From NCBI GenBank assembly GCA_029378245.1, contig JARKIF010000009.1:434001-498000 (forward strand): 64,000 bases of DNA. Reading direction: 5' to 3'. The translations under genes and the position numbers were made by a program. Shown piece after piece: positions 1,479 to 18,736 of the stretch; position 1 is the first letter of the stretch, and every line of letters starts with the position of its first letter. The stretch is from Roridomyces roridus. Lineage: Eukaryota > Basidiomycota > Agaricomycetes > Agaricales > Mycenaceae. A model generated the notes under the pieces. That model saw only the letters and a program-made list of their open reading frames with translations, searched no databases and was not told where the DNA came from.

Positions 1479-2954
1479 TTAGCTCCCCCGGAATCCCATA
1501 AGGGTCAGGAGGCGCTGTAGGGCAGGTCGAGAAAGGGGTTTGGTGAGAAGGTCAGCCAGCTGGTCCTGAGTGGGCACATAATCAATCTTGATAGTCCCTC
1601 GAGCCACCTCGTCGCGAAGCCAATAATGAGCCATGTCAAGATGCTTCATTCGACCATGGTGCTCAGGGTTGTTGGCCACCTTGATAGCAGACTGGTTGTC
1701 CAAATAGAGAACAGAGCTTCCAAACACCTTGTATCCCAACTCCCAAAGAAGGTTGCGCACCCATTTGGTCTCTTTGCCTGCGTCCACTCCAGCAATGTAC
1801 TCTGCTTCAGTAGTGGAGAGCGAAACTGTAGACTGTAGTTTGCTCTTCCAGCTAACTGGAGCACCATTCATCATCACAACATAACCACTTGTGCGTTTCC
1901 CGGAGTCCTTATCGCCTCCATGGTCAGCATCAGAGTAGGTTACAAAGGAAGTGGGTGAGGATGAACGGCGATAGGTAAGCTTGTAGTCCAGAGTACCCTT
2001 GATGTAGCGGAACAAATGCTTCACAGCTTTCCAGTGAGATTCACCAGGATTGCCAAGGAAGCGGCAAAGGATCCCAACAGCACCAGCAATGTCAATGCGT
2101 GTCTGGGTGGCCAAGTACATCAGAGAGCCAACAGCAGACTGGTAAATGCCCTTGTACTGCTTGGACTCCTCTTCTGTTCTGGCTCCCATCTCCTTGGTCA
2201 GTGCAAGTCCAGGAAGCATAGGAGTAGTCACTGGCTTGCAATCTGACATCTTGAACTGCTCAAGCATATCCACAGCATATTGGCGCTGAGACATAGAGAC
2301 TGTACCAGCATCCCAGTCACGCTCAATCTTGATACCCAACAAGAACTCTGTGGGACCAAGATCCTTGACCTTGAATGATTGGCCAAGTTCAGCGATGACT
2401 TTGTCAATGTCAGCTGGGTTCTTGGCAGCAGCACAACCATCATCGACATAAATGGGAATGATCACTCTGGTCTTGCCATTGTCATAGACATAGCAGGAGC
2501 GATCTGACTGGATACATTTGAAGCCCATTGAAAGGAGCTTTGCATGCAGCTTCTTGTTCCACTGCCGGCCAGCCTGCTTCAACCCATAGATGGCTTTACC
2601 AAGGTGAAGCACCTGGCCTGGTTTTCCTTGTGTAAAACCTTCAGGTTGAGTCATATAGACATCTTCCTCAAGATCTCCATTCAGGAAGGCAGATGAGAAA
2701 TCAAAGGAACGAAGATGAAGATCATGCTGAGCAGCAAGAGCAAGGACAATGCGAAGGGTGGATGCCTTCATGGTGGGGGAGAAGACCTCGACAAAGTCAA
2801 TGCCATGGCGTTGGCCACGGCCATCAGCAACAAGCCGAGCTTTATAGCGCTCAATGGTGCCATCAGACTTGTGCTTGATGAGAAAGACCCATTGAGAGCG
2901 AATTGGCTTTACGCCAGGTGGACAATCCACAACATGTTGGAAGTTGTTGATCAA
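1479..2954 (-). CDS. Ty1/copia Pol fragment: reverse transcriptase and RNase H
   Basis: An uninterrupted 491-codon frame encoding the C-terminal half of a copia polyprotein, which copies element RNA into DNA and removes the RNA strand. Visible landmarks: ERYKARLVADG near residue 37, SAFLNGDLEEDVYM near 90, GLKQAGRQW near 125, the catalytic YVDD near 168, then RNase H motifs SDADHGG, STTEAEYIAG and the KHLDM block before the stop. Integrase, protease and gag are missing. The first few residues (2935-2954) come from the antisense of the abutting family B LTR, so the apparent start codon is accidental and the coding match begins at about 2934. The frame has no stops, so truncation is recent or the copy is young. 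Confidence 0.9.
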   Translation of the reverse strand: MINNFQHVVDCPPGVKPIRSQWVFLIKHKSDGTIERYKARLVADGRGQRHGIDFVEVFSPTMKASTLRIVLALAAQHDLHLRSFDFSSAFLNGDLEEDVYMTQPEGFTQGKPGQVLHLGKAIYGLKQAGRQWNKKLHAKLLSMGFKCIQSDRSCYVYDNGKTRVIIPIYVDDGCAAAKNPADIDKVIAELGQSFKVKDLGPTEFLLGIKIERDWDAGTVSMSQRQYAVDMLEQFKMSDCKPVTTPMLPGLALTKEMGARTEEESKQYKGIYQSAVGSLMYLATQTRIDIAGAVGILCRFLGNPGESHWKAVKHLFRYIKGTLDYKLTYRRSSSPTSFVTYSDADHGGDKDSGKRTSGYVVMMNGAPVSWKSKLQSTVSLSTTEAEYIAGVDAGKETKWVRNLLWELGYKVFGSSVLYLDNQSAIKVANNPEHHGRMKHLDMAHYWLRDEVARGTIKIDYVPTQDQLADLLTKPLSRPALQRLLTLMGFRGS

Positions 2955-3233
2955 CTGATGATATTGATTTGATGGACTGATGGCATTCTCGTGTTCTGGT
3001 CATGTGACCGTGTTTCTGATATTCATCTGACATGGGAATTCTCCCATGATATGCTTCTTTCCTATTGTATTTACCAATTAGGACTTCCTTTTGTTCTGAC
3101 AAGTATATAGTCAGCTGTCATGTAGCCCAGGTCCCCAGTTTCTCACTGTTGACCTCAGGCATGTAGTTTCATAGTCACCAATACAGAGTTTCTCACTGTT
3201 GACCTCAGTTCATCTGTGCTGCCTGCTTCAACA
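2935..3233 (+). mobile_element. Copia LTR, family B (5' LTR)
   Basis: A 299-bp LTR, TGTTGGAAGTTG...GCTTCAACA, matching the solo copies at 13316-13618 and 7539-8120. It contains a tandem pair of TTTCTCACTGTTGACCTCAG near its end and a TATATAG box about 130 bases before the end. It is followed directly by a primer-binding site and a plus-strand gag-protease-integrase frame, so it is a 5' LTR. Its left end abuts the minus-strand Pol fragment exactly. Confidence 0.88.
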
Positions 3234-3248
3234 GGTTATGGGCCCCGG
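3234..3248 (+). other. Primer-binding site, half-tRNA (initiator Met) type
   Basis: GGTTATGGGCCCCGG lies directly after the 5' LTR. It is complementary to the anticodon stem-loop region of eukaryotic initiator tRNA-Met (GGGCCCATAACC), not to the tRNA 3' end. Priming from a 5' half of initiator tRNA is the established mechanism of Drosophila copia; its use here is inferred from the complementarity. Confidence 0.7.
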
Positions 3249-3599: not shown

Positions 3600-5129
3600 T
3601 TGATCTGCCACCACATCATCATTATCATTTCGATGCCGTATCGCATTCCTGTCAACCCTCCTGCCCTTCCTGCCTCGTGCATTGGTTGTGGTAATCCCAG
3701 TCACACCCTGTTCAACTGCTCTCAGCTTTTGGAGCTGCTTCAGGACAGGGAAGAAACCCCTAGTGAAGAGCTGTTTCATCTGGCATCTAGTGCAAGCATT
3801 CTCTACAATTCAGCTTTACAGTCCACACAATGGAAACCAGACTCTGGAGCTACTTCGCACATGACCCACATGCGTGAACGCTTGCTCAATGCACGTCCGC
3901 ACAGAGTTGCCATTCTTGTGGCCAATGGAGTTGCTGTATACTCCGAGCTGATTGGAGAGATCCGGCTTGAGCCACTTGTACATGGACACCACAGCCGTTC
4001 TATAATCCTCACAAATGTCCTCTATGTTCCAATGTTGTCTCATAATCTCATCTCTGAGACCTACCTGTCCAAAGTTCATGGCTATTCTATTCTCATGGAG
4101 GGATCTCTGATCTCCTTCAAGAGGGAAGGAGAGCTGTTATTTGAGGCAGACATTGATGAGAGGAACGAGGCATATGTCCGAGAGATTGAACAACCGACTT
4201 ATGCAGCTATCTCTGCAGTTGGCACCTTGCCTCTTGATCTGGAACTGCTGCATCGGCGGCTTGGGCATCATGCTGACACCCAGAAGATCTTGAGCAAGGA
4301 GCTGGTGACTGGTGCGAAGTTGACTTCAAACCAGAAACCAGATCCAATCTGTGAGCCCTGCATTGCAGGAAAGCTTAACGCGGCTCCATTTCCCTCTACT
4401 GGACATCGTTCCAAGGCGCCTCTTGATCTCATACACTCTGATCTGAAGCAATACAAGGTTTTCACCCGTGAGGGCTGGAAGCATCGTATTATCTTCATAG
4501 ATGATCACACAGGCTTGAAAGCAACTATGCACATGAAGCGCAAGAGTGGAGCATTGAAAGCGTTCAAGGTGTTCAAGGCGCAAGCTGAGAATCACTTTAA
4601 TCGCAAAATCAAGGCGTTCCAGGACCATGAAGGTGGAGAGTGCATGTCCACTGAATTTGCAGACTTTCTGGCTGCAGAGGGCATTGTGCGTCGTCATTCA
4701 ACGAGGAATAGACCGCAACAGAACGGGATGGCTGAACGGGGCAATCGCACCGTTGATGAACATGTAACTGCTATGTTGCATGAAGCAAATCTTCCGCCTT
4801 CTTTCAAGGCACTTGCTGTTGAGTCCTACATCCATGTGGCCAACATGCATCCTACGTCTCACATTCCGGATGACACCACTCCCTATGAGCTTTGGCACAA
4901 GGAGAAGCCGGATGTGACACATCTTCGGGTCTTTGGCTGCCTTGCCTATGTGCCTGTGCAGAAGGACAAACGCGATGCCTCTGGGATACACTTCCAGAAA
5001 TGCATCTTTGTTGGTTATCCAACAGAATACAAGGGTTGGAAATTCTACAACCCTGTCACTCGGAAGATTGTCATTGCAGAACCAACAGGCAGAGGAGCCT
5101 TGCAGAGGTTCTACACAACTGCAGCCTGA
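3600..5129 (+). CDS. Ty1/copia polyprotein fragment: zinc knuckle, protease, integrase
   Basis: A 509-codon frame with copia domains in order: CCHC zinc knuckle CIGCGNPSHTLFNC (residues 27-40), aspartic protease active site DSGATSH (about 81-87), the GAG-pre-integrase block with LLHRRLGHH and CEPCIAGK (about 215-265), and the integrase core. The integrase D, D, E residues sit in HSDLKQ, FQDHEGGE and NGMAERGNR. The second motif is more often SDNGGE in this family, so it has diverged around the retained Asp. The reverse transcriptase and RNase H expected downstream are absent on this strand. The upstream gag is truncated. The frame is intact but the element is not autonomous. Confidence 0.9.
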   Translation: MICHHIIIIISMPYRIPVNPPALPASCIGCGNPSHTLFNCSQLLELLQDREETPSEELFHLASSASILYNSALQSTQWKPDSGATSHMTHMRERLLNARPHRVAILVANGVAVYSELIGEIRLEPLVHGHHSRSIILTNVLYVPMLSHNLISETYLSKVHGYSILMEGSLISFKREGELLFEADIDERNEAYVREIEQPTYAAISAVGTLPLDLELLHRRLGHHADTQKILSKELVTGAKLTSNQKPDPICEPCIAGKLNAAPFPSTGHRSKAPLDLIHSDLKQYKVFTREGWKHRIIFIDDHTGLKATMHMKRKSGALKAFKVFKAQAENHFNRKIKAFQDHEGGECMSTEFADFLAAEGIVRRHSTRNRPQQNGMAERGNRTVDEHVTAMLHEANLPPSFKALAVESYIHVANMHPTSHIPDDTTPYELWHKEKPDVTHLRVFGCLAYVPVQKDKRDASGIHFQKCIFVGYPTEYKGWKFYNPVTRKIVIAEPTGRGALQRFYTTAA

Positions 5130-5377: not shown

Positions 5378-6013
5378 TGTTGGAGATCAGTGATTGTATC
5401 ATCGATCATTGATGGACTGATGGCATGTTTGTGTCACGTTCTAATCATGTGATTGTGTTTGATGGTATCATGCCCTTGTTCCCTTTATGGCATTCCCCTT
5501 GTAGTCTCTTATTTAGGCATTCCCTTTGTCTTGGTACACATATATACCAGCTAGAGTAGACCTGAGTCCCCAGTTTCTCACTGTTGACTCAGGTATGTAT
5601 TTCTTCTCATATTGAATAAAAGAGTTTCTCACTGTTGACTCAGTCCACTGTGTGTTGAATGGTGGGAACGGGTTGGCAGTTAGGTACCCGGTTCCCTTTC
5701 CCTCTCGCGATTGTCATGGACGTTTACATACACGATAATTATGTATCAGGATCCGTGTGGGACAGATCGACTCGATATAGTTACATTAGCGGTACCAATA
5801 ACGGATAAACGGACCTTGGATACTCATAGTAGCTTACTAGTCGGCTCCCGCTCTTTGTATAAGTAGTTTCCCTCTCTGAGGTTATTCCTCAGAGAGAAAG
5901 AACCCGAATACACTGGTTTCTCATATACTCTTCTTAGTCGCCCTTTAGTCGACCTCGTCGAGCGGACCATCCTCCGGCCCTCTTATTCCAACACTGTGCT
6001 TCCTGTTTCAACA
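5378..6013 (+). mobile_element. Copia LTR, family A, split by a nested solo LTR
   Basis: Starts TGTTGGAGATCAGTG and ends CTGTTTCAACA, the plus-strand counterpart of 1164-1453. Between the conserved CAGTCCACTGTG and CTTCCTG it is split by a 341-bp family C solo LTR (5653-5993). The left flank TGTCC does not match the bases after 6013, so this LTR lacks an obvious target duplication. No polypurine tract precedes it. Confidence 0.85.
5653..5993 (+). mobile_element. Solo LTR, family C, nested in family A LTR (TSD CTGTG)
   Basis: A 341-bp LTR, TGTTGAATGGTGGG...TTATTCCAACA, flanked by CTGTG at 5648-5652 and 5994-5998. The target sequence is exactly that of the uninterrupted family A LTR. It has a TATA box (TTGTATAAGTAG near 5855) followed by a perfect 10-bp hairpin stem (CTCTCTGAGG / CCTCAGAGAG, 5872-5896). 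No coding interior is present, so it is a solo LTR left after LTR-LTR recombination. Confidence 0.93.
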
Positions 6014-6015
6014 TA

Positions 6016-6138
6016 TGTTGGAAAATGGCTGAAGCAGGATTCGAACCTGCGACCTTCTCAGTATATTCGAGATGCTCTTTAACCAACTGAGCTATTCTGC
6101 CAATAGTGTGAAGGGAACTCCCAGAAGGACCTTCAACA
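6016..6138 (-). mobile_element. TRIM LTR with tRNA-like domain, copy 1 (solo)
   Basis: A 123-bp unit with TGTTG...CAACA ends, differing at a single base from the two identical LTRs of the complete miniature element at 9821-10186. The flanks (ACATA on the left, CGTCC on the right) do not match and neither side shows the TRIM interior. It is therefore a solo copy whose target duplication has been lost, probably on the left, where a copia LTR ends two bases away. Confidence 0.85.
6026..6101 (-). tRNA. tRNA-like domain inside TRIM LTR copy 1 (pseudo-tRNA, TAT loop)
   Basis: Cloverleaf with a 7-bp acceptor stem carrying one A-A mismatch, a 4-bp D stem, a 5-bp T stem and a 5-base variable loop. 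The A box (TAGCTCAGTTGG) and B box (GGTTCGAATCC) are exact. The anticodon loop AATATAC would place TAT at 34-36, but the universal U33 is A. It is probably a Pol III promoter domain of a repeat, not a working Ile tRNA. Confidence 0.5.
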
Positions 6139-7374
6139 CGTCCAACACTGGGCTGGCGAGTCTCAACTCCGTCACCATTGACGTTCTCCCAGCCCTAGGA
6201 GAAAACACAAGTTTCCGGTGGCTGCCTCCCAAAGAGAATGCATTTCTGTACAATGTCATCAAAATTTTGTCCCCCCTATGAGTCCTCCCTGATTTGAGCA
6301 ATGATATTGTCTGTGTCCGCTCCTTGTGGTAGACACTGGGCACGAAGCCTTTGAATGACTACAAATGTCCTTTGGCGCTGGGGTGGCCCTCCATAACACG
6401 CTTGCTGGAAATGAGGAGTGACAAGCGGACATAGAATCTCCTGTCTGTCTTGAGCAAGCTGTTGAGGAGTGCTGGGTGCAGCGTGCGCCGTGTTTTTTGG
6501 CCATAGGGGAAAAGGGAAGTTGGATATGCAGCTGCCTTAATGCTCTTTGACATCCCCTACTGTCGGACAGCCTGCTCACCATGTGCACCCAAACGGCTAA
6601 TGTCTCTGTTGATTTGAGGGTAGAATGACCACCAATAATCCCAGCCGCTTGGGCTGAAGCCCTTGGATGCGGGCTGGCCGTGTGGCAAGCTTTGCGGAAA
6701 TGAGAAGTCAGGACTGTTGGAAAGGACAATGGCAATGTGAGCAGCAGCCTTCATGGATCATTCTGCTCAGAGCGGGGCCAAAGAGATCCAGATTGGGAGC
6801 AGTCCAAGGGATGACCCAACATCAAGAATAGAGTCGTGAGGTGTGCACTGAGTTGGAATTGAATATTGGAACTAACTAAACCAACGACATATCGCTGGCA
6901 TGTATCTCTTATTAGGAATGTTTCCATCAGTATGTCCTCAATGTATATGCGAACTCCGCAGCGGCAGCACATCCTTGAACTTGAGCAACGGCAATGTGGG
7001 ACATCAAAGTTCATGCACCGGCCAACGTGAACATGCCCAAACCTGCGGCAGCTGTGGCCAGTCGGTCGCATATCCACAACAAGAGTGATGGAGAGTGAAA
7101 TGGCTTGAAGTCAGTGCTTTCAAGCGAATTCAAGGTTTCGGAGACCACGGGATCCATCTACTCACATGCACAGGAGCTTGACACAAGTTTGCTTCTTGGC
7201 AGTTAGATTTTAGATTGTTTGCATTGTGATGCTGGCGGCATTATCACAAGTTCTCCAGCTGCTGTGTTTGCGATTGATGCAATGGTGAGTAGCGGCAGGT
7301 AGAGAATGGATTCTGAATCAAACCAGTGGAGCCTGTTCAACCATGCTCAAGTGGAGCCTTGTCCACCGCTGCCT
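6139..7374. other. Unclassified repeat-island DNA with broken minus-strand frames
   Basis: Several minus-strand frames of 60-160 codons (about 6092-6343, 6259-6735, 6557-6754, 6751-7077) overlap or follow one another in different phases. This could be one gene broken by frameshifts, but no known domain can be recognised. It is bounded on both sides by TRIM LTR copies. No function is claimed. Confidence 0.3.
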
Positions 7375-7497
7375 TGTTGAAGGTCCTTCTGGGAGTTCCC
7401 TTCACACTATTGGCAGAATAGCTCAGTTGGTTAAAGAGCATCTTGAATATACTGAGAAGGTCACAGGTTCGAATCCTGCTTCAGCCATTTTCCAACA
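7375..7497 (+). mobile_element. TRIM LTR with tRNA-like domain, copy 2 (solo, TSD TGCCT)
   Basis: A 123-bp solo copy flanked by perfect TGCCT duplications (7370-7374 and 7498-7502), showing that the 123-bp unit behaves as an integrated LTR product. It differs from the copies at 9821 and 10064 at three positions, each a CpG turned into TpG or CpA, consistent with decay of methylated cytosine. Confidence 0.92.
7412..7487 (+). tRNA. tRNA-like domain inside TRIM LTR copy 2 (pseudo-tRNA)
   Basis: The same cloverleaf as the other copies, with intact A and B boxes followed by TTTT. Two of the three CpG-type changes of this copy lie here, in the anticodon stem and just before the T stem. The Pol III promoter boxes are unchanged. 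Confidence 0.5.
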
Positions 7498-7538
7498 TGC
7501 CTTTGACACCGACTCCTCATCTCCGCAGACACCCTTAT

Positions 7539-8120
7539 TGTTGTAAGTTGTTGATCAACTGATGATATTAATGGCATTCTCGTGTTCTGGTCATGTGACC
7601 ATGTTTCTGATATTCATCTGACATGGGAATTCTCCCATTATATGTTGGAATAAGAGGGCCGGAGGATGGTCCGCTCGACGAGGTCGACTAAAGGGCGACT
7701 AAGAGGAGTATATGAGAAACCAGTGTATTCGGGTTCTTTCTCTCTGAGGGATAACCTCAGAGAGGGAAACTACTTATACAAAGAGCGGGAGCCGACTAGT
7801 AAGCTACTATGAGTATCCAAGGTCCGTTTATCCGGTATTGGTACCGCTAATATAACTATATCGAGTCGATCTGTCCCACACGGATCCTGATACATAATTA
7901 TCGTGTATGTAAACGTCCATGACAATCGCGAGAGGGAAAGGGAACCGGGTACCTAACTGCCAACCCGTTCCCACCATTCAACATTATATGCTTCTTTCCT
8001 ATTGTATTTACCAATTTGGACTTCCTTTTGTTCTGACAAGTATATAGTCAGCTGTCATGTAGCCTAGGTCCCCAGTTTCTCACTGTTGACCTCAGTTCAT
8101 CTGTGCTGCCTGCTTCAACA
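7539..8120 (+). mobile_element. Solo LTR, family B, split by nested LTR (TSD CTTAT)
   Basis: Starts TGTTGTAAGTTG and ends TGCTTCAACA, flanked by CTTAT at 7534-7538 and 8121-8125. Compared with 2935-3233 it has a small internal deletion after GATGATATT and only one of the two TTTCTCACTGTTGACC repeats. A minus-oriented family C LTR splits it at 7643-7983. Confidence 0.92.
7643..7983 (-). mobile_element. Solo LTR, family C, nested in family B LTR (TSD TTATA)
   Basis: The 341-bp reverse complement of the LTR at 5653-5993, starting TGTTGGAATAAG and ending CCATTCAACA in plus-strand reading. TTATA is duplicated at 7638-7642 and 7984-7988. It keeps the TATA box and the 10-bp hairpin. It inserted after the host family B LTR was already solo or in place. 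Confidence 0.93.
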
Positions 8121-8444
8121 CTTATCACTGTTGTTCCTTCCCACTGCTGCTTTGGAATTTTTTACTTGCTTCGACAACCCTGTTGACCATCCATCGACAC
8201 CTTCACTAAGGTTTGTGGCTTGTCTTGTGTATTGCTTTCCAACTTCTGTGATCTTCATCTGACCTCCAATCTTCATGGGTGCATAGTTTGAGGAGGTAAG
8301 GGTCCAAGAAAAATGATTGCTGGAATTAGTCTGTGAACGGCCTGTGTGGGCATCAAGAAAGGGCTCCCCGGTATGATATACCTACGCAGGTCCGGAACTA
8401 CTGAGTCAGTCCAAAGGTCACAGTGGGGCAATGATAGCAGATTC
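8121..8444. other. No gene seen
   Basis: Unique-looking sequence between solo LTRs with no open frame of note and no recognisable repeat end. Confidence 0.4.
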
Positions 8445-8785
8445 TGTTGAATGGTGGGAACGGGTTGGCAGTTAGGTACCCGGTTCCCTTCCCCTCTCGT
8501 GATTGTCATGGACGTTTACATACACGATATCTATGTACCAAGATCAGTGTGGGACAGATTGTCTTGATATAGTTACATTAGCGCTACCAATACCGGATAA
8601 ACAGACCTTGGATACTCATAGTAGCTTACTAGTCGGCTCCCACTCTTTGTATAAGTAGTTTCCCTCTCTGAGGTTATTCCTCAGACAGAAAGAACCCGAA
8701 TACATTGGTTTCTCATATACTCCTCTTAGTCGCCCTTTAGTCGACCTCGTCGAGCGGACCATCCTCTGGCCCTCTTATTCCAATA
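8445..8785 (+). mobile_element. Solo LTR, family C (no clear TSD)
   Basis: A 341-bp family C LTR that starts TGTTGAATGG and ends CCAATA, so the terminal CA has decayed to TA, as in the copy at 10842. The flanks GATTC and GGGTT do not match. The hairpin stem has one mismatch. It is an older copy than 5653-5993. Confidence 0.88.
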
Positions 8786-9820
8786 GGGTTGGCCACGTCA
8801 GTGTGTGCAGCTTGGGCAGGAGGCTTGCACAGACTGTGTATTTAGCCGCACACCCCTGAGTTGGGGGTTGGGTAGAGGGTAGGTGAGGGGTGGGTGGCAG
8901 ATGGGAGCGTGATGTCAGGAACACGTGTCATGTCAGGAGCGGATGATGTGCCGCCCACACAATCCACATGGACACCTGTCTCTCCCCCTCTGGGATACAG
9001 GGTGCTGTTACTTTGCAGTACCACCACGGCATCTTGCAAGAAGTGCGGAAATTTACACGCAGAATGGGGATAAAGGACGTCTGCAAGCTGGAGCCAGAGG
9101 CTAAGCTCCTTGTCTTGGACATGATACTGGGGATGCTCTTGAATCAGAACAAGCTCGACTTGTTCATGGATTGCCTCCCCGCCATCCAGACCCTTCAGCA
9201 CAGAGGGGAGGACATGGAGCCGCATGGTCAAAGGTGCTCAATCTTTACCCTATTCTTGTTGTTGATTAGCACTCTATCCATCTTTCTTTATCATTTCGAG
9301 GCGGAGAATGGGAGAGTCCTTGCAGCACTTTGGGACTCCGCTCCTCTTCTCTGACCATGTTCTCAGTCCTCTGACTACCAATCATCCACACCATTCAAAG
9401 CATGTGATGAAGGTGTATTGTAGCCAGAATGATGCCCACTACCACTGCAATGCTCAAAACATGCTCGAGCATGAGAGGCTTGCAAACGAGCAAAATATGT
9501 GAGTTTCTGTAATGTTGTGACTTGTTTCTTTTTTTTCTGCACTGTCATCAATTATGCAAACAGCTGTAACAAAATTCAGATAGCCTAGGCTCACACCTTG
9601 AAATACACAATATTCGCTCCCGACGTCTCGCACCTTATAATGTACAATATTCAACTCAATGTATGTTCACTTGTATAATGATATTCACGACATTCTGTTG
9701 CTGTTTTACCATGTTCAAATACACTGTGTTCGCCACCTCACCCATGCATCAAAGATGGGCTTTCCTTTCACCTCCATCCACAGTCTTTTATGGTGTCTAT
9801 GATACTGTCAAACATACTCG
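8786..9820. other. Repeat-island DNA, no supported gene
   Basis: Frames of 64-129 codons on both strands overlap at about 8842-9354. The plus frame at 8968-9354 has a somewhat protein-like stretch (LVLDMILGMLLNQNKL) but no domain, splice pattern or partner supports a gene. The region 9520-9760 is AT-rich and featureless. Confidence 0.3.
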
Positions 9821-9857
9821 TGTTGAAGGTCCTTCTGGGAGTTCCCTTCACACTATC

Positions 9858-9933
9858 GGCAGAATAGCTCAGTTGGTTAAAGAGCATCTCGAATATACTG
9901 AGAAGGTCGCAGGTTCGAATCCTGCTTCAGCCA
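9858..9933 (+). tRNA. tRNA-like domain in the TRIM 5' LTR (pseudo-tRNA, TAT loop)
   Basis: Acceptor GGCAGAA pairs with TTCAGCC except for a central A-A. The D stem GCTC/GAGC, anticodon stem TCTCG/TGAGA and T stem GCAGG/CCTGC all pair. The A box lies at 9865-9876 and the B box at 9912-9922. A discriminator A is followed at once by TTTT (9934-9937), a Pol III stop. U33 is replaced by A, so use as an elongator tRNA is doubtful. Confidence 0.55.
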
Positions 9934-9943
9934 TTTTCCAACA

Positions 9944-10063
9944 TGGTAGCAGCAGCTACTAGATGTAAGACGAGTAACGACCGCATTCTGGCCAGTGCCT
10001 AGGAAAATGGTGCCCCCCTTTGTGAGATCCCAAAGAGCCAATAGTGTTCGGGTTCCGGGGGAG
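9944..10063 (+). other. TRIM interior: primer-binding site, spacer and polypurine tract
   Basis: A non-coding 120-bp interior. TGGTAGCAGC at 9944-9953 would pair with an initiator tRNA-Met 3' end of the GCTGCTACCA kind. The last nine bases before the 3' LTR are rich in G and A and fit a plus-strand primer. No open frame spans it. Confidence 0.75.
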
Positions 10064-10100
10064 TGTTGAAGGTCCTTCTGGGAGTTCCCTTCACACTATC

Positions 10101-10176
10101 GGCAGAATAGCTCAGTTGGTTAAAGAGCATCTCGAATATACTGAGAAGGTCGCAGGTTCGAATCCTGCTTCAGCCA
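10101..10176 (+). tRNA. tRNA-like domain in the TRIM 3' LTR (pseudo-tRNA)
   Basis: Identical to the domain at 9858-9933, with A box, B box and terminal TTTT. A Pol III transcript that began in the 5' LTR and read through its first TTTT would end here, which would make this domain the repeated R region. Confidence 0.55.
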
Positions 10177-10186
10177 TTTTCCAACA

Positions 10187-10841
10187 ACTCGTTGGACCCA
10201 GAGACTTTGCCATTCAGACCAGGCTGATGTCCCTCCAGTTGTGCTGCTAATCACTGTCCTCCACATCTCTTCCTTTTCCTAGGAGCAAAAAGCCCTACTC
10301 AGACAACAAACAACACAGGCAAAAAAAAGAGGCTTTACCACAAATGGTGCCAGTCAGTGTATGCACCACCCTAGCACTCTATGCTCTTTAACATACCACA
10401 GCCACACACATAGGCAGTCTGCCAGCTCAACATGGTGTATATGTACATGAGAAGCATGGGAACCACAACCAACATCAGGGCAATGACATCCTCTATATTG
10501 TGCTTCCACCCAGGCCATCCAGGATCACACAAAAATACCACCTGTGCCTCTATTTTAATACACAACTGTGTCTGCTAATTGAGCTTCTAGGTCTTAAGGA
10601 TCTTGAGAAGGTGGTACTTCTCACACTCAAATGGCTCATACGGCACACAGCGCACTGCAAGGAAAACCATGTTTCAAGGGGAGAGTCTAATATATTGTCA
10701 GAAAGACGGATCATCCAGAGTTTACAACATCACCATTCTTTCCACAATGAAATCTTCCCTTGACGATGTCTTGCACGCTGTTACCAACTTTGCCGAGTCC
10801 AAACTCTTGGTCATCACCGATTTCGGACAACTCCATCAGCC
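10187..10841. other. Remnant DNA between TRIM and solo LTR
   Basis: Two overlapping plus frames (10500-10763 and 10603-10872) look like a decayed coding region. The second is open across a protein-like stretch (SSLDDVLHAVTNFAES) and ends at the LTR insertion at 10842. No family is recognised. Confidence 0.3.
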
Positions 10842-11185
10842 TGTTGAATGGTGGGAACGGGTTGGCAATTAGGTACCCGGTTCCTTTTCCCTCTCGCAAT
10901 TGTCATGGACGTTTTAAACACATACACGATATCTATGTACCAAGATCAGTGTGGGACAGATTGGCTTGATATAGTTACATTAGTGGTATCAATCTCGGAT
11001 AAATGGACTATTCTTACTCATAGTAGCTTACAAGTTGGCCCGCATGTTGTATAAGTAGCTTCCCTCTCTGGAGTCATTCTCCAGAGAGAAAGAACCCGAA
11101 CACATTGGTTTCTCACCTACTCCTCTTAGTCGCCCTTTAGTCGACCTTGTAGAGCGGACCACCCTCCGGCCTTCTTATTCCAATA
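10842..11185 (+). mobile_element. Solo LTR, family C (TSD CAGCC)
   Basis: A 344-bp LTR, TGTTGAATGG...CCAATA, flanked by CAGCC at 10837-10841 and 11186-11190. It is the most diverged family C copy. Its hairpin is CTCTCTGGAG / CTCCAGAGAG: two base pairs differ from the other copies and both changes are compensated, so the stem still pairs perfectly (11064-11088). Confidence 0.92.
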
Positions 11186-11689
11186 CAGCCTCACCGACTG
11201 TTGGAGATTGTGGTTTGGAGTGTCTGATCACATGGTGATATGCATCTCCTTCTTATTGTGTTCACTATCATGTCTTTCTTATTGTTCTGATCACTATCTT
11301 TCTTATTGTTCTGGTACAGATCTGGGTCTATTGTCTTTGGTATATAGCTAGCTAGCTACCTTGCAATGGATCTGGGCTTTTCGCCTCCCATCCGAGACCG
11401 CTCTATCAGCTCCCATCTGAGACCCCATAAGTACAACTTCTACAGAGCTGATACACTTTGAAAGATGGAATATTAATGATGCTTTTCCCTGTCTCATGAG
11501 CTGCCCAAAATGCAACGCAAAACTTTGATTTCAATTTCTAGGATACTCACCTGCGCCCTTGTCAGCATGAGACCCTACACTACATATTCACAACACTTGA
11601 GCCCCAAAGGCCTACTTTTTGTACAGAAAGCTTGTACTGTGCCGTATCTCTTGAATTATAATGATCGGCTCGCAAAGTGAATTTGAAAA
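11186..11689. other. Possible truncated LTR and intergenic DNA
   Basis: At 11199 a TGTTGGAGATTGTGG start resembles a copia LTR terminus, and a TATATAGCTAGC box lies about 140 bases further on. No matching CAACA end with a target duplication could be found. Otherwise no feature. Confidence 0.3.
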
Positions 11690-12176: not shown

Positions 12177-14133
12177 TCAACAGCGTGAATATGAGAGCGA
12201 GAGTAACAAGCAAAATCGGGCTGAAATACTTGCTGTACTTGACACCACAACCACCCTTCTTGAAGAAGATGCGACGCAGGATAGCTTTGATGATTGGGTG
12301 GCCGGCATACATGTTGAGCTCATCAGGATCCTGCACATAGCTATGTCAGCGCTGGGACTAACAGATACACGGACGCACACCTGGTAGTGAAAGGCGCTGT
12401 CCTCGAGGAGGTTATTCTGAAGCTTGACATTTGTCTTCCTGTCCTGCTTGGTCTCGCCGGCATTGAATCCGTAAGTGGGGCCGACGAGCGGCCAAATACC
12501 ATCCTTGAGGGAGCTGCGCGCGTGCGAGGCATACAACTTGATCTACAATGATCATCAGTCGGCCACCATAGACGCCAGCGAGCGTGAGACGTACCATTCG
12601 AGAAATCCGCTCCGTCAGCGCCGTCGGCTCTTGTGCGTCTGCATTGGCCCCATCCCAAATCTCCTGCACCCACAATTCTTGCAACTCGGTCGATGGGTAT
12701 GCGTCGACAGTGCAGATGCGAATCTCGTATTCGTGCATCGCACGCTGGATGAGCTTGCGTCCCGACTCGGTGAAATTCTTGAGGTAGGTGCGTGAGCCCG
12801 TAGGTGCTTTGCCGTCGGTGCATTCGGCCACCTTGGCCGGTGGGTCAGTGGCTGCTGCCGCTGTCTTGCTGCGTTTGCGAGGGCGTGGATTCGGGGAAGG
12901 GGAACGACGACGTGGCGGCGCCGAGCGGTGGATCCGTTTCTGATGCTGGGAGGGGTGAGGGGACGAAGAGGGGAGGGGCGAGGTGCGAGACAAGGAAGAG
13001 AGATGATGGGAAGTCCGAGGCGAGGACGACTGAGGTGGTTCTTCCTCCACCCCAGGCATGGGCGAGAAATCTCAGTGCAGATTAGTATGCTGCCAATTGT
13101 CGACAGCGCAGGGCGCACCTTGATCCTCGGTGGCGTTGGGATCGATTGGCCGTAAGGCGACTGTGATAAAGTGGACGGTGAGCTGCTGACAAGCACAAGA
13201 ATGGAGAGATGTACTGCGACGTGACATGGTTCCCGGCGTGGGGATAATCTCCTCACCAGACTTGCGCAGCAGCCTCTTCGGCAGTGGCTTGACGCCGGTA
13301 GTTACAATGACACCCTGTTGGAAGTTGTTGATCAACTGATGACATTGATTGATGGACTGATGGCATTCTCGTGTTCTGGTCATGTGACCGTGTTTCTGAT
13401 ATTCATCTGACATGGGAATTCTCCCATGATATGCTTCTTTCCTATTGTATTTACCAATTAGGACTTCCTTTTGTTCTGACAAGTATATAGTCAGCTGTCA
13501 TGTACTACAGCCTAGGTCCCCAGTTTCTCACTGTTGACCTCAGGCATGTAGTTTCATAGTCACCAATACAGAGTTTCTCACTGTTGACCTCAGTTCATCT
13601 GTGCTGCCTGCTTCAACACACCCTTGGAGACGAACTGAAGGATGTGAGAGATGGCTAGAGAAGGGTGGCTTGCGTATGGAATCACTGAACGCAGACATTT
13701 GAATTGGATCGTCTGGCTCGTCCTCGCTCTCCGGGGGTGTACGGTCTCTGTCGCGTTCACGAAGAAGAGCTACAGATCTGATGAGATGAGAGCAAAATTA
13801 TCGAAGAGCAACGCACCCTTGGTCTCCTCGTGCTTCTTGTGGGCGGTGGCGAGCTGCTTCTTGAGCCGCTCAATCTACCTGTCCTTCTTCTTCTCGGTGT
13901 TCTTTTCTATTCGGGCTGAAGTCAGTACGAGCACAAGGAATAATTAACCACTTACCGTTTTCCTGCACCTTGGTGGTACTCTGGCATTTCCGTGCAGTCT
14001 TGCCATTGGCGGCGGCAGCGGCTTGCTCCAAATTGAGTTTCGGAAGAGGCTTGGACTTGGAGTGGGGCAGAACGGGAGCATCGGAGTCGGGTCCTGAAGA
14101 ATCATCGTCGGAAAGGATGACTTTTCTAGCCAT
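12177..14133 (-). pseudogene. DUF6532-domain gene, decayed and split by an LTR
   Basis: Read on the minus strand from ATG at 14133: an Asp/Ser-rich N terminus, a charged coiled-coil (IERLKKQLATAHKKHEE), a Ser/Pro/Arg low-complexity stretch, then a domain of the DUF6532 type (LIQRAMHEYEIRICTVDAYP, TALTERISRM, YASHARSSLKDGIWPLV, GYGF-like block, GHPIIKAILRRIFFKK, YFSPILLVTLALIF). Function of the family is unknown. At least two short introns are clear in the domain (near 12546-12596 and 12333-12382). Damage: TAG at 13875-13877, TGA at 13072-13074, a solo LTR at 13316-13618 and a one-base frameshift near 12190. The C terminus is missing. It starts 135 bp from the divergent Plavaka gene. Confidence 0.8.
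13316..13618 (+). mobile_element. Solo LTR, family B, inserted in the DUF6532 gene (TSD CACCC)
   Basis: A 303-bp LTR, TGTTGGAAGTTG...GCTTCAACA, flanked by CACCC at 13311-13315 and 13619-13623. It is nearly identical to 2935-3233, with both TTTCTCACTGTTGACCTCAG repeats. It sits antisense within coding sequence of the DUF6532 pseudogene. Confidence 0.95.
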
Positions 14134-16634: not shown

Positions 16635-18736
16635 TATTGGGTCGGATAAAACCCATTTGTCGCGATTCAGCGGCGACAAGCAGGCCTGGCCTGTCTATCT
16701 TTCAGTGGGAAACCTTTCGAAAGAGACGCGGCGCAAGCCCTCCGAGCGCGGTACCGTTCTACTCGGCTACGTACCTGTGACGAAATTGCACTGTTTCTCT
16801 GAAGATAACCGCTCGATGGCCGGATATCAGTTATTCCGCAAGTGTATGCGCTCTCTCCTCAATCCGTTGGTCCAGGCGGGGAAGGAAGGTGTCGATATTC
16901 TGTGCGCAGATAGCCAGGTGCGGCGGGTCTTCCCCGTGCTCACGGCCTACGTGGCGGCCTACCCCGAGCAGTGCTTGGTCGCGTGCTGCAAGGAGAATTG
17001 ATGTCCGGTGTGCAAGGTGGACCCGAAGAAGCGTGGGATGCCCGTGTACTCGGCCCTGCGCGAGCCAGAGGAGACGGTGAAGCTGATGAGAAAGGAGGCA
17101 AGGGGATTCAAGCCGGATGGATTCAAGAAGCACGGCTTACGTCTCGTTAATCCGTTTTGGAAGGACTTGCCGCACTGCAACATCTTTCAATGCTTCACGC
17201 CCGACATCTTACACCAACTTCACAATGGCGTTTTAGATCACATCGTCAAATGGTCTACGGCGTCTCTCGATCCGAGTTACTCGGAGGAGGACGCCAAGTC
17301 CGAGATCGACTTCCGCTTTCGTTCCATACCCAATCATCCCAGCCTCCGCCATTTCAGACTGGGCATCTCTCTCGTGTCACAATGGACTGGGACCGACCAC
17401 AAGCACATGGAGAAAATATTCCTTGGCGTCTTGAACGGCGCTGCCGACCCACAAGTCATCCTCGCTGTCCGCAGCGTTCTCAACTTCATTGAGTACACAC
17501 ACTTCGAACTTCACACCAACAATTCCCTGGTGAAGCTCGAGGAGGCTTGGTTCCGTTTCCACAACAACAAGGACGTCTTCATCGACAATGGCGTCCGCAC
17601 ACATTTCAATATTCCCAAAGTCCACGCGATGAAACACTACGTCGACATGATTCGGTCCGTTGGCACTGCGGATGGCTACAACACCGAGCTTTCTGAACGT
17701 CTACATATTGACTGCGCAAAACTCGGCTACGCGGTGTCCAACAAACGGAATTATATTCAGCAAATGACCCGTTGGCTGATGTGTCATGAGGCCATCCATC
17801 GCTTTGCCTCCTATCTTCAATGGGCGATCCCGGGGTATTTGGTCAGTCTCGGCAAACGCAAGTCCTCGGAGGATTCGGTCAACGAGGATGATGAGTCAGG
17901 GGAAGAGAGCGACCGTGACGATCAGCCAGCCACTGCAAGTGCAAGTACGACACCAGTCCAATTTACCATCACCAAAAAAGCGCCATTTCCTCGCGTTTCG
18001 GTGGCAAAGCTCGAGGGCGAGTACAGTGCCGTCGACTTTCTCTATCATCTCGAAGCCTTTCTCGAATCTCGCTCGATGCTTCCCAGGCGCTTCCACGATA
18101 TTTCGGCAACATTTCCCGTGTACAAAGGCTTCGTTAATAAAATCCCTCCATCCACTCGTGTCTCGACAACGACCCTCGACGATCGTATCTGCGCAGTACG
18201 CGCAGTGCCGGCACGCGGGTTGAAGAAGGCAGTCCTGCAGCACTTTGATACCGTGCTCGCATACAAGGAGCCACCGCGCGCGCCATCTAGCAATCAGAAT
18301 CTCCATGGTATTACTCTCCGACTTCGACATCTCTTTTCTGACTTCTGTTCTATGTCACGACAAGACTTGTTTCACGCGTCCAACAGCGGTAAGATGCTGT
18401 GGATTGGGTAGTGCGCTACTGAAGCTCGTAAAATGAACTGAATAAAAGTCTAGGAGAGGGTACAGAATACGACGACTAGCTACTGCTTTTATACTATGAG
18501 GAATAAATCTACGATGCTACACTAATTGTCCTGGCTTCCGACATGCACTATTGTCCTGCACCTTTGTCGTCTCCTATTGTCGTGTCTACACCGTGTTCTT
18601 CATAGAAGCCTGTCATAATCTGACAGTTCACTGATCAAAAACTCCTTCCCTCATCCACGCTGTCGTTCATAAATATGAAACTGTTCCCACATCTTTAAAT
18701 AATGTCTTCCTCGGCTTCTTCCTCAATCCGATCGAG

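What the first reader, a model, noticed from the sequence alone, without database searches (positions are those of the whole stretch)
9821..10186. A complete 366-bp TRIM whose LTRs carry a tRNA-type Pol III promoter
Seen directly: two identical 123-bp repeats (9821-9943, 10064-10186), a 120-bp interior starting TGGTAGCAGCAGC and ending in a G-rich tract, and ACTCG on both outer sides. Each LTR holds a 76-base cloverleaf with exact A box (TAGCTCAGTTGG) and B box (GGTTCGAATCC). Known: TRIMs are tiny non-coding LTR elements, and plant Cassandra TRIMs carry 5S RNA promoters in their LTRs. A tRNA-based counterpart in a basidiomycete would be a separate invention of Pol III-driven LTRs. Inference: a Pol III transcript is reverse transcribed by a partner element.
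Basis: partly seen in the sequence, partly recalled or inferred. Interest (0 to 1): 0.93.

Follow-up and report, generated by a model that had tools for sequence, protein, structure and literature searches.

The report
Tiny retrotransposon carrying tRNA-like promoters
This mushroom genome carries a 366-base jumping element whose two end repeats each contain a tRNA-like sequence; the kind was already named in 2024, but here its copies sit almost only in tight retrotransposon clusters, beside the full-size element that probably moves them.

Summary
Two identical 123-bp LTRs (9821-9943, 10064-10186) flank a 120-bp interior, with ACTCG on both sides; each LTR holds a 76-nt tRNA-like sequence (Rfam tRNA, 56 bits). 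It is a real TRIM: 12 distinct complete sites (8 with an exact 5-bp target duplication) and 15 distinct solo LTRs (8 exact). The primer site matches the 3' end of host tRNA-iMet; the purine tract differs by one base from that of a Copia family.

The claimed novelty fails. TRIMs with tRNA-like LTRs are "Helenus" (Kojima 2024), already reported from fungi, including Agaricus and Coprinopsis. This is a new family of that kind.

What adds something: on contigs over 1 Mb, 20 of 21 TRIM sites lie within 20 kb of an LTR of that Copia (random placement: mean 0.6, maximum 5 in 20,000 trials). The clusters resemble the putative Copia centromeres of two other mushrooms. TRIM and Copia are nested in each other. 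This supports mobilisation by a Copia of this kind and suggests centromere targeting, which is not proven.

Pol III transcription is not shown. A TTTT directly follows the tRNA in both LTRs, so full-length Pol III RNA needs read-through of the first and an end at or after the second.

The parts
9816..9820 (.). left target site duplication ACTCG
   Evidence: sequence
9821..9943 (+). 5' LTR, 123 bp, TGTTG...CAACA
9858..9933 (+). tRNA-like sequence in the 5' LTR (anticodon TAT by ARAGORN)
9865..9876 (+). A box TAGCTCAGTTGG
   Evidence: position
9912..9922 (+). B box GGTTCGAATCC
   Evidence: position
9934..9937 (+). TTTT directly after the tRNA (weak Pol III terminator by yeast standards)
   Evidence: PMC9278858 passages
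9944..10063 (+). interior, 120 bp, no long ORF (longest stop-free run in the 366 bp is 72 codons)
9944..9956 (+). primer binding site TGGTAGCAGCAGC; 13 other copies TGGTAGCAGCAAC, complement of the 3' end of host tRNA-iMet
10051..10063 (+). polypurine tract GGTTCCGGGGGAG
10064..10186 (+). 3' LTR, identical to the 5' LTR, with tRNA-like sequence 10101-10176 and TTTT at 10177-10180
10187..10191 (.). right target site duplication ACTCG
   Evidence: sequence
6016..6138 (-). solo LTR of the same family, no target duplication
7375..7497 (+). solo LTR of the same family, target duplication TGCCT
2935..3233 (+). LTR of the Copia family that clusters with the TRIM, followed at 3234 by GGTTATGGGCCCCG, complement of the tRNA-iMet anticodon arm
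3600..5129 (+). Copia ORF fragment (Pol_BBD and retroviral SH3-like domains over cut-off)
1479..2954 (-). Copia reverse transcriptase ORF (RVT_2, 214.5 bits), a second related Copia family
13316..13618 (+). further LTR of the Copia family (86.6% to the C103 copy)

Best explanation
A young Helenus-type TRIM (TRIMp3) moved by a Copia retrotransposon. Shown: LTR-interior-LTR structure, primer site for host tRNA-iMet, polypurine tract, 5-bp target duplications, many nearly identical copies, tRNA-type A and B boxes in each LTR, and co-clustering and mutual nesting with one Copia family. Inferred: Pol III starts near 9858 in the 5' LTR, reads through the weak TTTT and ends at or after the same TTTT in the 3' LTR, giving an RNA with about 80 repeated nucleotides at its ends; a Copia particle packages it, primes it with tRNA-iMet, and the Copia integrase inserts the cDNA where Copia itself goes, in clusters that are probably centromeres. 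I hold the TRIM/Helenus part at about 0.97; the stated confidence is for the chain with Pol III transcription and Copia mobilisation together.
For: Copies and target duplications. Primer site exact to host tRNA-iMet. Purine tract of TRIM and Copia differs by one base, same TGTTG...CAACA ends, both 5-bp duplications. Copia also primes on tRNA-iMet, at the anticodon arm. 20 of 21 TRIM sites on contigs over 1 Mb lie within 20 kb of a Copia LTR start, random maximum 5 in 20,000 trials. Nesting both ways with clean duplications. A and B boxes; no TATA[AT]A or AATAAA in the LTR. Fungal Helenus use Copia by published inference (PMC10886601).
Against: The Copia uses a different site on the same tRNA, and beyond the purine tract and LTR ends no interior match between TRIM and Copia is better than E 0.76. 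No element other than the TRIMs has the exact 16-mer CA+PBS. TTTT in the 5' LTR may end Pol III early, and the same signal in the 3' LTR is equally weak. The tRNA part folds only slightly better than shuffles, 11 of 200 as good. No sign that both boxes are kept by selection among copies: A box 0 and B box 10 of 58 substitutions. C24 has a TRIM but no Copia of this family; C112 and C334 have Copia but no TRIM. No RNA data.
Confidence: 0.55

Rival explanations
1. The tRNA part is a passenger: the TRIM is transcribed by Pol II from an unrecognised LTR or outside promoter, and the tRNA-like part is a relic of an old SINE or tRNA-gene insertion into the LTR.
For: The tRNA is degenerate and folds weakly; TTTT follows it directly; B box carries 10 of 58 substitutions among LTR copies, 8 of them at CpG.
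Against: A and B boxes complete in the window copy and in the 16 of 46 LTRs equal to the majority; no TATA[AT]A or AATAAA in the LTR; published conservation of the boxes across Helenus families (PMC10886601).
Confidence: 0.25
2. Another autonomous element, not this Copia family, moves the TRIM; the shared clusters only reflect where insertions are tolerated or where both kinds were targeted independently.
For: The Copia's primer site differs from the TRIM's. A fungal Copia with the tRNA-iMet 3'-end primer site is on record (PMC10886601). 8 of 21 exact primer-site 13-mers lie outside TRIMs and were not inspected. A second, related Copia family shares the clusters. The random-placement control does not allow for general clustering of transposons.
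Against: Many LTRs are identical (16 of 46), so there was little time for loss elsewhere; purine tract, LTR ends and duplication length fit this Copia.
Confidence: 0.25
3. Not a TRIM: tandem tRNA pseudogenes or a SINE.
For: ARAGORN and Rfam call tRNA in each repeat.
Against: TGTTG...CAACA LTRs, primer site, purine tract, solo LTRs and fixed 5-bp duplications.
Confidence: 0.01

Closest known systems
Helenus / TRIMp3 (Kojima 2024, PMC10886601; abstract, text parts 1-4 of 6 and passages seen)
   Same: TRIM with a tRNA-like sequence with A and B boxes in each LTR; PBS, PPT, 5-bp duplications in fungi; no protein; 311-1263 bp; inferred Copia mobilisation; known from Agaricomycetes.
   Different: A separate family by this genome's sequence (not compared with Kojima's consensus sequences, which I could not see). 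Primer site at the tRNA-iMet 3' end, a minority type in fungal Helenus. Co-clustering with Copia in centromere-like islands is not in the paper (the word 'centromer' does not occur).
Cassandra (5S rRNA TRIM of plants; PMC7215508 and PMC10853983, passages)
   Same: Pol III promoter inside the LTRs of a TRIM.
   Different: 5S rRNA, not tRNA; plants; Pol III-type transcripts reported there, none here.
Copia-28 of Agaricus bisporus (PMC7473861, passages) and GlCEN427 Copia of Ganoderma leucocontextum (PMC10817607, passages)
   Same: Copia confined to one repeat cluster per chromosome, taken as centromere.
   Different: Those are autonomous-type elements with support from whole chromosomes; here contigs only, and the TRIM is the new rider.
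tRNA-derived SINE
   Same: tRNA-type Pol III promoter in a short mobile element.
   Different: SINEs have no LTRs, primer site or integrase-type fixed duplication (recalled); the element has all three.

Membership tests
TRIM | under 1000 bp, two LTRs, no coding capacity | tested here: met
   366 bp, identical LTRs; longest stop-free run 72 codons
TRIM | PBS and PPT at the interior ends | tested here: met
   complement of host tRNA-iMet 3' end and GGTTCCGGGGGAG
TRIM | target duplications and multiple copies | tested here: met
   8 of 12 distinct complete sites and 8 of 15 distinct solo LTRs with exact 5-bp duplication
Helenus (TRIMp3) | tRNA-derived sequence with A and B boxes inside each LTR | tested here: met
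Helenus (TRIMp3) | 5-bp target duplications in fungal members | tested here: met
Helenus (TRIMp3) | transcription by Pol III (expected, not proven by the author) | not testable with these tools
   no RNA or ChIP data
Helenus (TRIMp3) | sequence relation to a published Helenus family | not tested
   the consensus sequences are in supplements that were not available
Cassandra | 5S rRNA-derived sequence in the LTR | tested here: not met
   Rfam on 5500-11500 gives only tRNA
functional tRNA-Ile gene | intact acceptor stem and anticodon arm | tested here: not met
   one unpaired acceptor position; A instead of U before the anticodon (rule recalled)
SINE | no LTRs, variable target duplications | tested here: not met
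centromeric retrotransposon | confined to functional centromeres | tested here: inconclusive
   one cluster on each of 13 contigs over 1 Mb that carry the Copia, one outlier LTR on C442, TRIM on C24 without Copia; no CENP-A or Hi-C data

The most novel reading that the evidence does not exclude
A Pol III-type TRIM that rides on a centromeric Copia and is inserted almost only into centromeres, so that it seeds putative centromeres with tRNA-type Pol III promoters. If these fire, they would supply short and read-through transcripts, or TFIIIC sites, within centromeres, a role that I did not find described for Helenus or Cassandra in the passages seen.
Probability: 0.2. Interest if true: 0.7.

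Novelty: new member of a known kind. Interest (0 to 1): 0.42.

Why it matters
Helenus was defined by bioinformatics, and its mover was inferred mainly from primer-site likeness. Here a young family, a probable Copia mover, a near-identical purine tract, the same primer tRNA species and shared target clusters lie in one genome, so trans-mobilisation and centromere targeting of a Pol III-type TRIM become directly testable. It also warns annotators: 27 of the 61 tRNA matches listed for this genome (only 63 of 4178 candidates were scored) are LTRs of this element, not tRNA genes.

Tried and rejected
Long element with the same LTRs: C90 and C244 show two LTRs 3.4 kb apart, which looked like a larger element. 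The second LTR has its own duplication (CCGAC), and C90 and C244 have identical flanks at both LTRs, so these are separate solo LTRs seen in what are probably two haplotypes.

Source of the tRNA: host tRNAs were searched. Of the 61 listed tRNA matches 34 are not TRIM LTRs; 20 regions covering 21 of these 34 were fetched. With the A-box 22-mer the nearest non-TRIM places are at 3 mismatches: five of one form (one of them, C296, called tRNA-Ile-AAT by ARAGORN) and two copies of another repeat. No close donor was found, so no recent capture is seen.

Other tRNA-LTR families in this genome: a two-gap pattern search was asked five times and never answered. Whether other Helenus families exist here is open.

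Autonomous element with the TRIM's own primer site: no exact CA+PBS 16-mer outside TRIMs; 5 non-TRIM places at one mismatch (backwards control 8 of that kind) and 8 of 21 exact 13-mers outside TRIMs (control 2) were not inspected. The first iMet pattern found nothing; a 3'-end pattern worked (8 exact, 11 with one mismatch, control 4). Of four iMet loci fetched, ARAGORN called only L104 tRNA-Met; L103 and L106 I read as intron-bearing iMet by eye (ARAGORN named them Thr and Gly), and L105 gave nothing.

Purine-tract pattern: 259 places at up to 3 mismatches against 101 in the control, so the 3-mismatch hits are mostly noise; I relied on the 21 places of one form at one mismatch, of which three were read and lie at the 3' end of Copia.

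Structure: the tRNA part folds at z -1.7 (11 of 200 shuffles as good), the minimum-energy fold is not a cloverleaf, whole LTR z -0.6, interior z 0.0. Selection on the boxes: not seen.

Viral contigs: no match to 31 bases of the tRNA part. Organism not named: of the 120 listed protein hits one bears an organism name, Ganoderma boninense, at 53%. PMC9674265 was opened for 'TRIM' and proved irrelevant (passages).

Full report
OBSERVATION. The sequence is as described: two identical 123-bp repeats at 9821-9943 and 10064-10186, a 120-bp interior, and ACTCG outside both ends. ARAGORN calls tRNA-Ile(TAT) in each repeat, and Rfam gives 56 bits against a gathering score of 29. The A and B boxes are complete. 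The tRNA has one unpaired acceptor position and A in place of the usual U before the anticodon (read; the rule is recalled), and its minimum-energy fold is not a cloverleaf, so it is probably no working tRNA.

FAMILY IN THE GENOME. The own genome (90.8 Mb, 501 contigs) has 37 matches to the 366-mer and 47 places with the A-box 22-mer at 0 or 1 mismatch, all at TRIM LTRs. I compared the flanks of 12 uninterrupted complete copies and 19 single LTRs, plus two complete copies interrupted by later insertions (C24; C103). Two complete and two single copies have the same flanks as others (C438 as C68, C244 as C90), probably second haplotypes, and were dropped. Two single LTRs (C103b, C480a) follow remnants of an interior and were not counted as solo; C469 has an interior and 3' LTR only and was not counted as complete. 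That leaves 12 distinct complete sites, 8 with an exact 5-bp duplication (not exact: C442, C138, C142, and C46A, which is part of a composite), and 15 distinct solo LTRs, 8 exact, 2 with one mismatch, 5 without. In the ten uninterrupted distinct copies the two LTRs differ at 0 to 3 positions. Of 46 LTRs aligned (haplotype copies included) 16 equal the majority; of 58 substitutions 28 are C-to-T or G-to-A at the 8 CpG positions of 123, as methylation of older copies would give (inference). The family is young.

REPLICATION SIGNALS. The host tRNA-iMet gene L104 ends GTTGCTGCTA, to which CCA is added. The interior of 13 copies begins TGGTAGCAGCAAC, the exact complement; the window copy has one change. 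The purine tract is GGTTCCGGGGGAG. A search with the purine tract-LTR junction found the TRIMs and, at one mismatch, 21 places of the form GGTCCCGGGGGAGTGTTG; the three that were read lie at the 3' end of a Copia element. The Copia copy at C103 (L062 1069-5758) has 298-bp LTRs, 99.0% alike, TGTTGGAAG...CTTCAACA, and gag, Pol_BBD, retroviral SH3-like and RVT_2 domains over several broken ORFs. It is itself inserted in the interior of a TRIM with duplication AAAGA. Its primer site GGTTATGGGCCCCG is complementary to the anticodon arm of the same host tRNA-iMet. So TRIM and Copia share LTR ends, almost the whole purine tract, duplication length and primer tRNA species, but not the primer site, and no other interior match is better than E 0.76.

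CLUSTERING. The Copia LTR start (21-mer, up to 2 mismatches) occurs 87 times, against 1 in the backwards control. On contigs over 1 Mb there are 52, on 13 contigs, each in one cluster of at most about 33 kb (a single LTR start on C1), except one outlier at C442:363416; the other 35 lie on small contigs. Three of the 37 rows are further pieces of the same elements (C103, C24), leaving 34 TRIM sites. Of the 21 on contigs over 1 Mb, 20 are within 20 kb of such a Copia LTR, 18 within 10 kb and 16 within 5 kb; random placement on the same contigs gives a mean of 0.59 and a maximum of 5 in 20,000 trials. This control does not allow for a general tendency of transposons to pile up, and nested sites are not fully independent. 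All 13 sites on small contigs share the contig with the Copia. The exception is C24 (TRIM, no Copia of this family); C112 and C334 have Copia clusters but no TRIM. I did not list contigs over 1 Mb that have neither; some exist (for example C35 and C79 appear in other calls without either). In Agaricus bisporus every chromosome has one large methylated repeat cluster taken as centromere, and Copia-28 is confined to and present in all of them (PMC7473861, passages). In Ganoderma leucocontextum the Copia GlCEN427 is confined to predicted centromeres (PMC10817607, passages). By analogy the clusters here are probably centromeres; this is inference.

NESTING. TRIMs sit inside Copia with clean duplications (C438B at Copia positions 1893-1897; C438A in a Copia LTR; the same sites as C68B and C68A). 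Copia sits inside a TRIM at C103. At C46 a Copia LTR starts at 622742, preceded by GCTAG, and a Copia 3' LTR end at 627691 is followed directly by TRIM interior from position 80, LTR, interior, LTR, and then GCTAG at 628099. Bases 622771-626499 were not read, so that this is one unit is inferred. It is either a joined cDNA integrated once, which would place both in one particle, or a Copia nested in a tandem TRIM followed by loss of 207 bp between two TGTTG words. I cannot tell which. At C469 Copia sequence passes into TRIM interior within the shared word CATGGTRGC, compatible with template switching or with a deletion.

MECHANISM. Neither TATA[AT]A nor AATAAA is in the LTR, so the tRNA boxes are the only promoter recognised. 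TTTT follows the tRNA at once at 9934-9937 and again at 10177-10180; 44 of 46 LTRs keep at least four Ts there. In yeast the minimal functional terminator in vitro is five Ts, and T4 supports very little pausing (PMC9278858, passages). A leaky T4 would let RNA run on to the 3' LTR, but the identical signal there is equally leaky; the 3' end of the genomic RNA is the weakest step of the model. In Kojima 2024 the word 'terminator' occurs once, about Cassandra.

KNOWN OR NEW. [quoted passage not shown]). The element meets every defining feature that I could test. The searches listed no paper that by title or start of abstract describes a tRNA-LTR TRIM in centromeres; most listed papers were not opened, so this is weak evidence of absence.

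VERDICT. Observation confirmed, TRIM reading supported, Pol III activity unproven, novelty claim wrong. The co-clustering with Copia in centromere-like islands is the part worth following.

Noticed in passing
L109 (C290:116180-116310) and L110 (C483:119460-119610): Two near-identical copies of another repeat with an A-box-like word (TAGCTCAGTTGGTTAA), GGTTCAATTCC and TTTT, below Rfam's tRNA cut-off: perhaps a tRNA-related SINE or another tRNA-bearing repeat.
   Followed up: partly
L108 and L065 (C46:622742-628098): Copia directly followed by TRIM interior 80-120, LTR, interior, LTR, with GCTAG outside both ends: joined cDNA, or nesting plus a 207-bp deletion. The middle was not read.
   Followed up: partly
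L064 (C480, upstream of the TRIM LTR at 506610-506732 minus): The TRIM LTR is preceded by about 28 A and only the last bases of the purine tract (CGGGGGAG), next to a Copia LTR end; possibly a template switch on a poly(A) RNA.
   Followed up: no
L002 and L107 (C442:222840-228303): A TRIM 3' LTR abuts a Copia LTR start with no target duplication, and the Copia LTR at 223158-223178 has a purine tract before and a primer site after it, as in a tandem array sharing an LTR.
   Followed up: partly
L058 3778/3779 (C90) and L059 387/388 (C244): A TRIM LTR and a Copia LTR stand head to head with no bases between.
   Followed up: no
L067 around 2610 (C469): Copia sequence passes into TRIM interior at a shared word CATGGTRGC that covers the TRIM primer site.
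   Followed up: partly
L104 versus L103 and L106: One host tRNA-iMet gene has no intron, the two others appear to have one after the anticodon.
   Followed up: no
L066 about 1585-2552 (C24): About 970 bp inserted in a TRIM 3' LTR, with LTR positions 95-105 found at both sides; nature unknown.
   Followed up: no
window 17008-18411: Fragment of a Plavaka (CACTA-like DNA transposon) transposase, Pfam 70 bits (the class is recalled).
   Followed up: no
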